Source: Streptosporangium sp. NBC_01495 (GTDB lineage: Bacteria; Actinomycetota; Actinomycetes; Streptosporangiales; Streptosporangiaceae). Taken from it: a stretch of 64,000 nucleotides of DNA. The DNA is taken from contig NZ_CP109430.1 of NCBI RefSeq assembly GCF_036250735.1, forward strand, positions 3,534,001-3,598,000. Reading direction: 5' to 3'. Of the stretch, positions 1,657-21,229 are shown in pieces. The position numbers and the translations under genes were made by a program. The notes under the pieces are model-generated. The model ran no database searches, was not told the DNA's origin, and was given only the letters and a program-made list of their open reading frames with translations. Within the stretch, counting starts at the first letter, position 1; the number at the start of each line of letters is the position of its first letter.

Positions 1657-2865
1657 ATGTCTGAGCAAGCGAGACGGGGCCGCGCGGTGAGGTGGGCCGT
1701 GCCGGTCGCCGCGATCGCGCTGGTCACCGGGGCCATCGGAGCCGGACCGGTCATCGCCGCCGTCCAGGGGGATCCCACGCTGCCGGAGCGTACCGCCGAG
1801 CAGTTGCTGGCCGGCGCCGCCCAGGCGAGCCAGGCCGGGTTGAAGCCCATGTCGGGCACCGTCATGCAGACCGCCTCGCTCGGGCTACCCGGGCTGCCCG
1901 GGATATCGGGCATGGGCGGATCCTCGCCCGCGGCCCTGCTGGCGGGCTCGCACGAGCTCAAGGTCTGGTACGGCGGCGAGGACAAGGTCCGCTTCGCCCT
2001 CCCCGGCCGGATGAGCGAGACCGACCTGATCGTCAACGGCGACCAGGTGTGGATGTGGCAGAGCGACGCCAACAAGGCCACCCGCATCAAGACGGGGACC
2101 GCGGACGGCACCGGGGGCGAGAAGGGCCTCGGGCACGGGGGGCCGGGCGACGGGGCCGACGCCGCGCACCGGGCGCTGCCCACGGCGACCACACCGCAGC
2201 AGCTCGCCCAGCAGCTGCTGGGACGGATCGGGGCCGACACCGCGGTCAGCGTGACCAACACCGAGAAGGTCGCCGACCGCGCGGCCTACCAGCTCGTCCT
2301 CGCCCCCAAGGACACCTCGTCCCTGGTCAAGGAGGTCAAGCTGGCGCTGGACGGGGAGACCTTCGTCCCGCTGCGGATCCAGGTGTACGCCAGGAACGCG
2401 GCCGAGCCCGCCTTCGAGGTCGGCTTCACCTCGGTCACGTTCTCCCCGCCCGCCGCGGAGAACTTCACCTTCACCCCGCCCGCGGGCGCCAAGGTCGAGG
2501 AGGCGTCGATCGGCGAGCTCGCCGGGGAGCACGGAGCCCGGCAGGGCGAGAAGCTCAAGGAAGGCGAGGAGATCAAGGACAAGACCAGGACCGTCGGCGA
2601 AGGCTGGACCACGGTCGCCGTGGTCCCCGCCTCCGAGATCGAGAAACTGACCTCGGCACCGCGGGGTGAGGCCCCCGCGGGACAGCAGGACGCCGGTGCG
2701 ATCACCGACGCCCTGCTGAAGTCGGCCAAGCCGATCAGCGGCACGTGGGGTAGCGGCAAGGTCATCCAGACCAAGCTGGTCTCCGCGCTGCTGACCGACG
2801 ACGGCCGCCTGCTGGTCGGCGCCGTCACCCCGGAGAAGCTGTCCGAGGCGGCCGGTAGGAAGTGA
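1657..2865 (+). CDS. LolA/RseB-like secreted protein
   Basis: A 402-residue exported protein with a signal or anchor segment at about residues 12-36 (AVPVAAIALVTGAIGAGPVI). The central part resembles the LolA/RseB-type half-barrel family found in actinomycetes next to two-component or sigma-factor genes: a motif around ELKVWYGGEDKVRFALPG followed by DLIVNGDQVWMW. The tail (about 320-400) looks like a second, DUF-like lobe. There is no lipobox. The start has GGAGG six bases upstream. It is divergent from the response regulator and is followed by a strong hairpin, so it is probably transcribed alone. In related bacteria such proteins sense envelope state or carry lipids; which applies here is not visible. 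Confidence 0.7.
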   Translation: MSEQARRGRAVRWAVPVAAIALVTGAIGAGPVIAAVQGDPTLPERTAEQLLAGAAQASQAGLKPMSGTVMQTASLGLPGLPGISGMGGSSPAALLAGSHELKVWYGGEDKVRFALPGRMSETDLIVNGDQVWMWQSDANKATRIKTGTADGTGGEKGLGHGGPGDGADAAHRALPTATTPQQLAQQLLGRIGADTAVSVTNTEKVADRAAYQLVLAPKDTSSLVKEVKLALDGETFVPLRIQVYARNAAEPAFEVGFTSVTFSPPAAENFTFTPPAGAKVEEASIGELAGEHGARQGEKLKEGEEIKDKTRTVGEGWTTVAVVPASEIEKLTSAPRGEAPAGQQDAGAITDALLKSAKPISGTWGSGKVIQTKLVSALLTDDGRLLVGAVTPEKLSEAAGRK

Positions 2866-18647: not shown

Positions 18648-18723
18648 AGATCTCGCGGCGGGGCGGGGTGATCTGCGGGAAAAGCGGTGTTATGCGGGTG
18701 ATCTTCCCGGTACGGTGTCACGC

Positions 18724-19458
18724 ATGGCGACCAAGTTGAACCAGATCCTCGCCGTGGAGAAGGGCGTCAAGTCCGACACCCAGCGCAAGGTGACCGAGGC
18801 TTACCACACGATCCAGAAGAACGCCCTGCTGTCGGGTCTCTCGCGGACCTACCAGCCCATCGACGACGAGGGCGAGCGGCTGCCCCCGGAGTCGACCCGG
18901 GTGCAGGTGCAGGGTGAGGATCTGCTCAAGCAGGTGGGCGCCGCGCTCACCCGGCTGTTCGACGTCACCGCCACCAAGGACTGGGCCAACTGCTCCGCGC
19001 GGGCCGACGTCAAGGTCGACGGCTCCACCCTCCTGGAGGACGTGCCCGTCACCTACCTGCTGTTCCTGGAGAAGCAGCTGGTCGACCTGCACACCTTCAT
19101 CGCCAAGCTGCCCATTCTGGACGCCGCCGAAGCCTGGACGCTGGACCAGTCAACCGACTGCTGGCGGACCGAGCCGGTCAAGACGACCCGTACCAAGAAG
19201 GTGCCCCGCAACCACGTCAAGGCGGAGGCCACCGACAAGCACCCGGCCCAGGTCGAGGTCTACCACGAGGACATCGTCGTCGGCTTCTGGACCAAGGTCA
19301 CCTTCTCTGGAGCCGTGCCGCAGAAGCGGGTCAACGAGCTCCTGGAGCGGGTCGGCAGGCTGCAGAACGCGGTGAAGTTCGCCCGCGAGGAGGCCAACGG
19401 CACCGAGATCACCTACCAGCGTGTCGGTGAGAAGGTGCTGGGCTACCTGCTCGGGTAA
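18724..19458 (+). CDS. conserved actinobacterial protein, unknown function, upstream of permuted tRNA-like RNAs
   Basis: A 244-residue soluble protein without signal or membrane segments. It starts MATKLNQILAVEKGVKSD and contains highly polar, conserved-looking blocks (LSGLSRTYQPIDDEGE, DVTATKDWANC, TYLLFLEKQLVDLHTF, RTKKVPRNHVKAEA, FAREEANGTEIT). I recall similar proteins in many actinomycetes but no assigned function. Many Lys, His and Arg residues around RTKKVPRNHVKAEATDKHPAQ could fit RNA or phosphate binding; that is only a guess. Only 42 bp separate its stop from the first structured hairpin of the RNA locus, on the same strand, so they may be co-transcribed. Confidence 0.8.
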   Translation: MATKLNQILAVEKGVKSDTQRKVTEAYHTIQKNALLSGLSRTYQPIDDEGERLPPESTRVQVQGEDLLKQVGAALTRLFDVTATKDWANCSARADVKVDGSTLLEDVPVTYLLFLEKQLVDLHTFIAKLPILDAAEAWTLDQSTDCWRTEPVKTTRTKKVPRNHVKAEATDKHPAQVEVYHEDIVVGFWTKVTFSGAVPQKRVNELLERVGRLQNAVKFAREEANGTEITYQRVGEKVLGYLLG

Positions 19459-19470
19459 GATCACAGGACT

Positions 19471-19502
19471 CCCCGTTGGAGCACGGGGATGCGCGAAAGC
19501 GC
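19471..19502 (+). other. two small hairpins just before the permuted RNAs
   Basis: CCCCGT-TGGAGC-ACGGGG (19471-19488) is followed by GCGC-GAAA-GCGC (19491-19502) with a GNRA tetraloop. They lie between the stop codon of the upstream gene and RNA element 1. They could be part of its leader structure, or a weak terminator of the protein-coding gene. Confidence 0.5.
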
Positions 19503-19645
19503 GGAAGCTGAAACTGAACCGTCAGACTGACACGCGGCCACAGTGGGGGTTCGAGTCCCTCTCCCGGCACCTTCGGGCCGGGGATAGCCCAAATGGTAGA
19601 GGCAGCCGCTCAAGCTCAGGCTCTCGCTCCAGATTCAGCATTCGC
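19501..19645 (+). ncRNA. circularly permuted tRNA-like RNA 1 with flanking helix
   Basis: The 3' half precedes the 5' half. Order along the DNA: anticodon-like loop CTGACAC (19527-19533), anticodon stem 3' strand GCGGC, 6-nt variable region, T arm GGGGG-TTCGAGT-CCCTC (19545-19561), acceptor 3' strand TCCCGGC, ACC, linker, acceptor 5' strand GCCGGGG (19577-19583), D arm with GCC...GGC and ATGGTAGA, anticodon stem 5' strand GCCGC (19605-19609). All 7 acceptor pairs, 5 anticodon-stem pairs and 5 T-stem pairs form. CTGACAC is the usual loop of tRNA-Val(GAC). The linker ACCTTCGG contains a C(UUCG)G tetraloop. Outside the core, 19501-19516 pairs with 19630-19645 (14 of 16 positions). Confidence 0.82.
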
Positions 19646-19665
19646 CGCCGGGCGCCGGATCGAAC

Positions 19666-19772
19666 GGATGCGGGCAACGATGGTCGAGTGCGGGTTCGAA
19701 TCCTGCTGGACGCTCCACGTGCGTCTATAACTTAATGGCAGAGTGCGACCTCATCATGAGTGACCCGGATCC
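19666..19772 (+). ncRNA. circularly permuted tRNA-like RNA 2 with flanking helix
   Basis: It has the same permuted order as element 1: anticodon-stem 3' strand GGTCG (19682-19686), 3-nt variable region, T arm GCGGG-TTCGAAT-CCTGC (19690-19706), acceptor 3' strand TGGACGC, discriminator T, encoded CCA (19715-19717), linker CGT, acceptor 5' strand GCGTCTA (19721-19727), D arm ACTT...GAGT with TGG in the loop, anticodon-stem 5' strand CGACC (19746-19750). The acceptor has 7 of 7 pairs (one G-U), the anticodon stem 5 of 5 and the T stem 5 of 5 (one G-U). The flanks 19666-19674 and 19764-19772 pair at 8 of 9 positions. The anticodon is ambiguous: the upstream loop reads CAACGAT, which would be ACG but lacks U33. 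Confidence 0.8.
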
Positions 19773-19784
19773 TTAAACGTGCCG

Positions 19785-19835
19785 GTGCCGCGATATGGCG
19801 GCACTCCAGGCCCTCGGGGAATGGATACTTCCCCG
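19785..19835. terminator. double hairpin after the permuted RNA locus
   Basis: GTGCCGC-GATATG-GCGGCAC (19785-19804) and CGGGGAA-TGGATAC-TTCCCCG (19815-19835), both with 7 perfect pairs. They close the RNA locus on the plus strand and can also stop transcription from the convergent HU gene. Confidence 0.65.
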
Positions 19836-19943
19836 GGGGCCGCCGCCTTCCCGCCCCCGCTCCCAGCCCGCGTCCCAGTGGCGTCTCGGACGGTGACGCC
19901 TCGGTTGGTACAGCCTCGGGCGGCCGGTGCGGGCCCGGAGAGG

Positions 19944-20231
19944 TCAGTCCTTCTTGCGCTGGCGGATCAGGCCCATGAACCCCGGGCTGGGCTTGAACTT
20001 CGCCGTCCAGGTCTCCGCGATCTCCAGCGGCTCCCCGGTCTGTGGGTTGCGCCCGGTCCGGGCGGGCTTGTGCACGATCTCGAAGGACCCGAACCCGGGA
20101 ATCGCCACCTTGTCCTCGGCCGCCACGGCCGTCTGGATCGTCCCCAGGATCGCGTCGAGAGCCGCGGCCGTCTGCCTCCGGGTGAGCCCGGCCTCGGCGG
20201 CGGCCTTCTCGATCAGCTCGCGCTTGTTCAT
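19944..20231 (-). CDS. hup: HU-family DNA-binding protein
   Basis: A 95-residue nucleoid protein that bends and coats DNA as a dimer. It starts MNKRELIEKAAAEAG, has the conserved core GFGSFEIVHKPARTGRNPQTGEPLEI, and ends with a short basic tail QRKKD. ATG 20231 gives the exact family start; upstream in-frame ATGs (20247, 20291) add residues without homology. It has the length of a plain HU and lacks the long Lys/Ala tail of the second actinobacterial HU type. Gene symbol by family only. Confidence 0.93.
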   Translation of the reverse strand: MNKRELIEKAAAEAGLTRRQTAAALDAILGTIQTAVAAEDKVAIPGFGSFEIVHKPARTGRNPQTGEPLEIAETWTAKFKPSPGFMGLIRQRKKD

Positions 20232-20330
20232 GGGGACAGTTAACGCCATCACCACCCGGTGAATCGAGCCCCGTCCTCCACTCGCCCCCATCGCGCTCTC
20301 CGCGACGGCGCCCCTTCGCGCGGGCGGCGC

Positions 20331-20757: not shown

Positions 20758-20920
20758 GAGCCCGAGGCTACGGAGAACCGAGTAAGGGCGGGGTAACCAA
20801 ACAGGCATATCGTGATGCACAGTATGTATGTCGGGGATCTATCTCTATGTCCTCCGATGATTAACCGGGTTGCTTTGGGTAGCAGGACGCTGGAATTACC
20901 GTCATCAGGGAGAAAACACC

Positions 20921-21229
20921 ATGGCTTTGCCCAAGCTCACCCCCGAACAGCGTCAGGCCGCCCTGGTCAAGGCCGCCGAGACACGCACAGCTCGCGCCAA
21001 GCTTCTCGCCGAGGTCAAGAACGGCGCGCTCAGCCTGGAGCAACTGCTTGGCCGTGAGGACGACATCGCCAAGCGCATCAAGGTGTCCCAGGCACTCCGG
21101 GCCCTGCCCGGAGTCGGAACGGTCAAGGCCGCCCAGCTGATGGAACAGGCCGACGTGGACGAGGCGCGCCGGCTGGGAGGCCTCGGTACCCAGCAGCGCC
21201 GCAAGCTCATCGAGGCCGTCGGCCGCTGA
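20921..21229 (+). CDS. mihF: integration host factor, actinobacterial type (mIHF)
   Basis: A 102-residue nucleoid-associated protein, unrelated in fold to HU/IHF, needed in relatives for nucleoid shape and phage L5 integration. It begins MALPKLTPEQRQAALVKAAE, has the long N-terminal helix, and carries the helix-two-turn-helix DNA-binding block around VSQALRALPGVGTVKAAQLMEQ with the closing GGLGTQQRRKLIEAV. ATG 20921 gives the family start, with GGGAG upstream. In many actinomycetes it is followed by gmk; here it is followed by a terminator and aceA, so the context is unusual. Confidence 0.93.
   Translation: MALPKLTPEQRQAALVKAAETRTARAKLLAEVKNGALSLEQLLGREDDIAKRIKVSQALRALPGVGTVKAAQLMEQADVDEARRLGGLGTQQRRKLIEAVGR

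What the first reader, a model, noticed from the sequence alone, without database searches (positions are those of the whole stretch)
19527..19609. First circularly permuted tRNA-like RNA: the 3' half is encoded before the 5' half
Seen directly: a T arm (GGGGG-TTCGAGT-CCCTC) and acceptor strand TCCCGGC come first, then after an 8-nt linker the matching strand GCCGGGG, a D arm and an anticodon strand GCCGC that pairs with GCGGC located upstream of the T arm. Seven acceptor and five anticodon pairs form only in this permuted order. Rejoined, it gives about 76 nt plus CCA, with the loop CTGACAC typical of tRNA-Val(GAC). Permuted tRNA genes are established in some algae and archaea; I know of no described bacterial case that is a functional tRNA. 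Bacterial YrlA-type Y RNAs are known tRNA mimics and are the main alternative.
Basis: partly seen in the sequence, partly recalled or inferred. Interest (0 to 1): 0.93.

Follow-up and report, generated by a model that had tools for sequence, protein, structure and literature searches.

The report
Two-headed tRNA-mimic RNA beside DUF7873
Next to a protein gene of unknown function lies a conserved structured RNA, shared by soil bacteria and many phages, that carries two tRNA look-alikes written back-to-front; it resembles the known bacterial Y RNAs but goes with a different protein, so it is probably a new RNA-protein pair and not a working tRNA gene.

Summary
The permuted T arm-acceptor-D arm module at 19527-19609 is real. 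Both lie in one ~390-nt structured RNA directly 3' of a DUF7873 gene (18715-19458). Downstream of DUF7873, at least one permuted module occurs in 80 of 80 actinobacterial loci (68 with two) and 66 of 80 viral-contig loci, against 13 of 3200 shuffles. Acceptor pairs covary. In 120 genomes of the family, 36 of 38 DUF7873 hits carry the RNA; the other two are weak partial hits.

It is not the first permuted tRNA-like RNA: bacterial Y RNA superposes on tRNA by circular permutation in print, and this genome has its own Ro60 gene with YrlA-type RNAs 1.18 Mb away. Nor does it look like a translation tRNA: 74 homologous modules give 24 'anticodons'.

It lacks the stem signature of Ro60-linked Y RNAs, scores far below Rfam's YrlA threshold and sits beside an unrelated protein. 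In two related Arthrobacter phages, Ro60/Y RNA and DUF7873/this RNA alternate in a shared tRNA island. Best reading: an undescribed Y-RNA-like RNP. Partner binding and function are inferred; no expression data were available.

The parts
18715..19458 (+). DUF7873 gene (start GTG 18715 or ATG 18724); putative protein partner
   Evidence: PF25283, 389.3 bits against cut-off 27, E 1.1e-116; ORF
19462..19852 (+). structured RNA with two tRNA-mimic arms; ends are inferred from the conserved block and the 3' hairpin, not mapped
   Evidence: MFE fold z -2.85; consensus folds
19470..19502 (+). two 5' hairpins (19470-19489 and 19491-19502)
   Evidence: MFE fold of the window sequence; not predicted as such in the 30-row consensus
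   Evidence: register uncertain, no covariation
19534..19609 (+). permuted tRNA module 1 (anticodon-type strand, T arm, acceptor 3' strand, 8-nt linker, acceptor 5' strand, D arm, anticodon-type strand)
19615..19639 (+). arm 1 basal stem, 3' side, highly conserved CTCAGRCTCTCGCTCCAGATTCAGC
   Evidence: alignments
19653..19681 (+). arm 2 basal stem, 5' side
   Evidence: compensatory changes on most of its pairs
19682..19750 (+). permuted tRNA module 2 (acceptor TGGACGC 19707-19713, linker TCCACGT, acceptor GCGTCTA 19721-19727; T arm 19690-19706; D arm 19730-19744)
   Evidence: own-genome model hit 71.3 bits (the window is one of the model's 46 sequences)
19764..19788 (+). arm 2 basal stem, 3' side, with the TTAAACG motif
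19809..19841 (+). strong 3' hairpin, probable terminator without a U run
   Evidence: alignment, fold; the terminator scan, which needs a T run, found none

Best explanation
A noncoding RNA encoded directly 3' of DUF7873 folds into two stalks, each ending in a tRNA mimic written in the order T arm, acceptor, D arm, with the chain entering and leaving through the anticodon stem. [Shown here by comparison: the structure, its covariation and the linkage to DUF7873; not shown: that it is transcribed.] DUF7873 binds the conserved stalk or junction region, as Ro60 binds the basal stem of Y RNA, while the mimics present an acceptor plus elbow to enzymes that recognise tRNA by shape, such as PNPase or tRNA-processing and tRNA-modifying enzymes, and so tether or compete with them. 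[Inferred by analogy with Ro60/YrlA and from the alternation with it in a phage tRNA island.] Shape rather than amino-acid identity is selected, since acceptor sequence and 'anticodon' vary freely. [Inferred.]
For: Linkage: modules in 80 of 80 actinobacterial and 66 of 80 viral loci; 36 of 38 DUF7873 hits in 120 genomes have a model hit of 50 bits or more within 700 nt downstream. Covariation in modules and arm 2. Same tip as Y RNA: sub-threshold YrlA hits fall on the modules and the module model finds Ro60-linked Y RNAs (33 of 77 hits of 50 bits or more lie 5' of a TROVE hit). Alternation: Arthrobacter phage Atuin has Ro60 plus two modules, its relative Mimi DUF7873 plus two modules, in a shared tRNA island. 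Y RNA as tether of Rsr to PNPase, and YrlA as substrate of DusA and TruB: passages of PMC8394870.
Against: No expression or binding data. DUF7873 is acidic (median pI 6.1) and has no recognised RNA-binding fold. Arm 1's basal stem shows no compensatory change. Four of 80 viral loci show no module near the gene (L104, L105, L144, L145), and Microcoleus phage L089 none adjacent. Rhizobium RHph_Y65 keeps both systems, so they are not simply interchangeable. The alternation rests on one pair of phages.
Confidence: 0.55

Rival explanations
1. Decoy or sensor in phage-host conflict: the two mimics attract tRNA-recognising nucleases or toxins and so protect tRNAs (phage) or sense attack (chromosome), with DUF7873 as stabiliser, effector or toxin of an RNA-protein pair.
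For: Present in phages, plasmids and chromosomes with patchy distribution; no conserved neighbour gene; in phages the gene often lies among tRNA genes. A competitive-inhibitor role for YrlA's tRNA-like domain is floated in a passage of PMC7790460.
Against: No PADLOC or PHROGs family matches. The module has no anticodon loop, so it cannot be bait for anticodon nucleases. No toxin-like fold found.
Confidence: 0.2
2. Cis element: the RNA is the 3' untranslated region of the DUF7873 mRNA and mainly stabilises, terminates or autoregulates that message.
For: It starts within a few to about 150 nt of the stop codon in the 22 loci and ends in a strong hairpin; the linkage is near-complete.
Against: Elaborate, covarying tRNA shape conserved from actinobacteria to Klebsiella phages goes beyond a terminator or stabiliser; in L154 the modules lie upstream of the gene and in L152 on the other strand.
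Confidence: 0.12
3. The linkers are cut by RNase P (and end-trimmed), giving a split RNA with CCA-bearing acceptor ends, as in permuted two-piece tmRNA.
For: NCCA follows the acceptor in 38 of 106 module-1 and 27 of 106 module-2 copies.
Against: Most copies lack NCCA; some linkers are only 4 nt long; acceptor sequences vary too much for one synthetase identity.
Confidence: 0.08
4. One reading: a permuted gene whose transcript is rejoined into a translation tRNA-Val(GAC).
For: The rejoined window module is called tRNA-Val(gac).
Against: 24 different triplets in 74 homologues, U33 in 16 of 74, module 2 equally variable; ARAGORN calls each of the 74 and 79 rejoined modules a tRNA, so that test does not discriminate.
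Confidence: 0.03

Closest known systems
YrlA, bacterial Y RNA (Rfam RF02553; PDB 6CU1), partner Ro60/Rsr (TROVE)
   Same: tRNA-like tip in permuted order T arm, acceptor with closed linker, D arm, on a basal stem; gene next to its presumed protein partner; found in phage tRNA islands
   Different: Two tips in one ~390-nt RNA in most loci (one in the Rhizobium and Vibrio phages fetched); different basal stems; partner gene is DUF7873 and not Ro60; 3' of the gene; 19.5 and 18.7 bits against a 69-bit threshold
Permuted tRNA genes of algae and archaea (PMC3978253, PMC3218864: listing and abstract start only)
   Same: 3' half encoded before the 5' half
   Different: No conserved anticodon; no sign that the halves are joined
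Permuted two-piece tmRNA (recalled)
   Same: Acceptor 3' strand precedes the acceptor 5' strand with a short linker
   Different: Full tRNA-type D arm, two mimic units, not called as tmRNA in the window by ARAGORN; no tag reading frame was looked for separately

Membership tests
YrlA / bacterial Y RNA | tRNA-like tip in permuted order T-acceptor-D | tested here: met
YrlA / bacterial Y RNA | score above Rfam's gathering threshold (69 bits) | tested here: not met
   window 19.5 and 18.7 bits; linked modules of 8 phage loci at most 37.6. Caution: the same genome's own Ro60-linked RNA also misses it, at 45.9 bits
YrlA / bacterial Y RNA | basal-stem signature of the Ro60-linked RNAs of this bacterial family (my motif, taken) | tested here: not met
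   0 in the window RNA, 1 of 80 actinobacterial and 0 of 80 viral DUF7873 loci; present in 6 of 6 Ro60 loci tested, some of which inspired the motif
YrlA / bacterial Y RNA | encoded beside Ro60 | tested here: not met
   Ro60 lies 1.18 Mb away in the window's genome; the neighbour is DUF7873
YrlA / bacterial Y RNA | bound by Ro60 or tethers PNPase | not testable with these tools
   needs biochemistry
Permuted tRNA gene | conserved anticodon and decoding function | tested here: not met
   24 and 32 different triplets among 74 and 79 modules; decoding itself not testable
Permuted tRNA gene | processing to a rejoined or end-matured tRNA | not testable with these tools
   needs RNA data
tmRNA | recognised as tmRNA, with tag reading frame | tested here: inconclusive
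   ARAGORN 0 genes in the window, Rfam none at gathering threshold; tag frame not looked for
DUF7873 (PF25283) | score above the Pfam cut-off | tested here: met
   389.3 bits against 27

The most novel reading that the evidence does not exclude
A new class of RNP, probably of phage origin: DUF7873, a protein with no assigned fold, carries a two-headed permuted tRNA mimic that engages tRNA-shape-recognising machines at two tips at once; it can stand in for Ro60/Y RNA in phage tRNA islands, guards or reroutes tRNA metabolism during infection, and has been taken into actinobacterial chromosomes.
Probability: 0.3. Interest if true: 0.92.

Novelty: new variant of a known kind. Interest (0 to 1): 0.77.

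Why it matters
It gives a family of unknown function (DUF7873) a likely partner RNA, adds an RNA that no Rfam 15 family covers at its threshold, and suggests that permuted tRNA mimicry is a recurrent, exchangeable part used beside at least two unrelated protein families. That makes the open question of what Y-RNA tRNA mimicry is for testable in laboratory phages that carry one system or the other (Mimi, Atuin). It also warns that tRNA finders can call pieces of such RNAs as canonical tRNAs (5 of 80 actinobacterial loci).

Tried and rejected

Conserved neighbour genes: 1065 ORFs around 160 loci were clustered; the largest clusters cover 10-11 loci and two of the three lie over the RNA, as frame shadows.

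Copies without DUF7873: of 77 R1 hits of 50 bits or more in 120 genomes (a search that says it loses weak matches), 38 are 3' of DUF7873, 33 are 5' of TROVE and 6 other. Of the six, three are tandem duplicate tRNA genes (Gly-Gly twice, Asn-Asn), which mimic the permuted pattern; two (G303, G401) look like Y RNAs by eye; one (G369) is unexplained.

Co-occurrence of DUF7873 and TROVE hits: 38 and 55 of 120 genomes, 27 both, Fisher p 2e-4; relatedness is not controlled and two of the 38 are weak partial hits.

Literature: DUF7873 in 0 papers of the held library. The other eight searches listed no title or abstract start that describes this RNA. Passages only were seen of PMC9569102, PMC7824862, PMC8394870, PMC7790460, PMC11472068, PMC10085705 and PMC7765460. 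Chen 2014, Wang 2018 and two Y RNA reviews are not held.

Full report
Observation. The permuted module is in the sequence as described. Seven acceptor and five anticodon-type pairs form in permuted order, and the unconstrained MFE fold of 19462-19852 contains them. A second, equally complete module lies at 19682-19750. ARAGORN and Rfam at gathering thresholds find nothing in the window. With lax thresholds on 19440-19800, YrlA scores 19.5 and 18.7 bits against a threshold of 69, one hit on each module; the top row by score is a plastid UTR family on the other strand.

Context. The gene directly upstream is DUF7873 (PF25283, E 1.1e-116), a family of unknown function. Downstream of the gene, a scan that requires T stem, T loop, acceptor pairing and D arm found at least one module in 80 of 80 loci (two in 68). 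The same scan gave 0 of 80 upstream, 3 of 80 on the minus strand, 1 of 80 at 700-1400 nt and 7 of 1600 dinucleotide shuffles. The window's own module 1, with its extra base, passes the looser scan but not the D-arm pattern of the stricter one (one search lists no window row).

Phages. DUF7873 occurs in 73 phage records: Vibrio 29, Gordonia 12, Rhizobium 12, Klebsiella 7, Serratia 6, Arthrobacter 3, Pseudanabaena 2, Rhodococcus 1, Microcoleus 1, many of them near-copies, and 258 viral contigs encode a relative. Of the 80 viral loci kept, 66 pass the pattern scan within 700 nt (controls 1 of 80 minus strand, 2 of 80 upstream, 2 of 80 further on, 6 of 1600 shuffles) and 74 have a covariance-model hit downstream on the same strand (tally by eye); L152 has it on the other strand, L154 upstream, L104, L105, L144 and L145 have none near. 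Some viral loci are part of the model's training set. Of ten named phage loci, nine have at least one adjacent module and six have two; Rhizobium (two) and Vibrio (one, 21.9 bits) have one; Microcoleus L089 has none adjacent but a HEARO RNA there. The model also scores junctions of tandem tRNA genes, so weak hits in tRNA clusters mean little.

Structure. Module 1: acceptor cells 99.2% paired over 51 sequences, changes on both sides at 7 of 7 pairs. Module 2: 99.7% over 46 sequences, 7 of 7. No shuffle of 500 reaches the observed values; slid registers give 38-54% paired cells. The anticodon-type helix is poorly aligned, 64.7 and 50.9% paired. These rows were selected for at least 6 of 7 acceptor pairs and linkers of at most 12 nt, which raises the percent paired but not the variety of pair types. 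For the whole RNA, RNAalifold predicts 62 pairs in 30 sequences, 38 with compensatory change, including the arm-2 basal helix and part of a closing helix. None of the ten arm-1 basal pairs has a compensatory change, and that stem can pair in more than one register because of CTGA repeats.

Is it a tRNA? Rejoined, the window module is called tRNA-Val(gac), but every one of the 74 and 79 rejoined homologous modules with a perfect anticodon-type helix is called some tRNA. Their 'anticodons' take 24 and 32 values, and U33 occurs in 16 of 74 and 11 of 79. The mimicked tRNA is thus not conserved. The linker begins with NCCA in 38 of 106 and 27 of 106 loci, more than a random triplet would give but far from universal; this may reflect descent from tandem tRNA genes or a processing site.

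Is it a Y RNA? The genome has a Ro60 (TROVE) gene at C1:2370194-2371774 with YrlA-type RNAs just upstream (YrlA 45.9 bits; module-model hits at 2369600, 2369753 and 2370046), 1.18 Mb from the window. In 120 genomes of the family, the search hits DUF7873 in 38, TROVE in 55, both in 27. Of the 38 DUF7873 hits, 36 have a module hit of 50 bits or more within 700 nt downstream; the two without are partial hits of 21-22 bits; the 36 include one fragment with stops (G343), one gene in two pieces (G317) and one with an internal stop (G363). Of 77 module hits of 50 bits or more, 38 are 3' of DUF7873, 33 are 5' of TROVE and 6 other. A stem signature taken from the Ro60-linked RNAs is found in 1 of 160 DUF7873 loci and 6 of 6 Ro60 loci. 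So the tip is Y-RNA-like but the RNA is a different one.

Analogous role. Two Arthrobacter phages share gene order around a tRNA island (blastn segments of 74-91% identity). Atuin carries Ro60 with two modules just after it, and no DUF7873 in the 16-kb stretch compared; it is not among the three Arthrobacter records with DUF7873. Mimi carries DUF7873 with two modules and no Ro60 in the 18-kb stretch compared. The two genes do not sit at the same spot of the island. Rhizobium RHph_Y65 carries both systems about 5 kb apart in one tRNA island. I infer that DUF7873 and its RNA do a Ro60/Y-RNA-like job; one pair cannot exclude coincidence. For Y RNAs, passages of PMC8394870 say that the basal stem holds Rsr, the tRNA-like domain binds PNPase, and DusA and TruB modify YrlA.

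Protein. AlphaFold2 gives a confident mixed alpha/beta model with no convincing relative in the PDB or viral libraries. The segment ATDKHPAQ holds several of the invariant or nearly invariant residues. The protein is acidic, median pI 6.1, so RNA binding remains an inference.

Evolution. In a tree of 106 rows, chromosomal DUF7873 (17 rows) and four viral contigs form one clade (93/88) among phage sequences at a midpoint root, with unsettled bootstrap and long branches: consistent with one main transfer but no proof of direction. Tandem duplicated tRNA genes produce the permuted pattern by themselves, a plausible origin of such modules.

Verdict. Real and conserved; not the first permuted tRNA mimic and very unlikely a translation tRNA; most likely a previously undescribed Y-RNA-like RNP with DUF7873. 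What it does in the cell is open.

Noticed in passing
window 19577-19586: Module 1 of the window has one base more between the acceptor strand and the D arm than the other 50 rows of alignment A3.
   Followed up: partly
G000:C1:2369600-2371774 (L082, L202): Ro60 (TROVE, 526 aa) gene with at least three YrlA-type Y RNA modules just upstream, in the same genome.
   Followed up: yes
L204 1672-3548: A second, divergent Ro60 type preceded by two modules 145 nt apart whose stems differ from the usual Y RNA (GGGTCGAAG...CGGTTATC).
   Followed up: partly
L218, L222, L223, L224; L216 5474-5553: Tandem tRNA genes (Gly-Gly, Asn-Asn, also Thr-Phe in phage Mimi) look like permuted modules to the model: false positives and a possible origin.
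   Followed up: yes
L029, L043, L047, L071, L075 just downstream of DUF7873: ARAGORN calls a canonical tRNA (or tRNA-???) inside this RNA, so annotation may carry false tRNAs here.
   Followed up: no
L221 about 1698-1772 (minus strand): A permuted module of 52.7 bits with neither Ro60 nor DUF7873 found beside it and a stem unlike either class.
   Followed up: partly
L089 3941-4150: Microcoleus phage DUF7873 gene is followed by a HEARO RNA (129 bits) in place of the two-module RNA.
   Followed up: no
L083 1069-1597: A tmRNA match (89 bits) inside the tRNA cluster of Gordonia phage Phendrix, not in the annotation shown.
   Followed up: no
window 19944-20291 (-) and 20870-21229 (+): Genes for an HU-type DNA-binding protein and an actinobacterial-type integration host factor lie just downstream of the RNA.
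   Followed up: no
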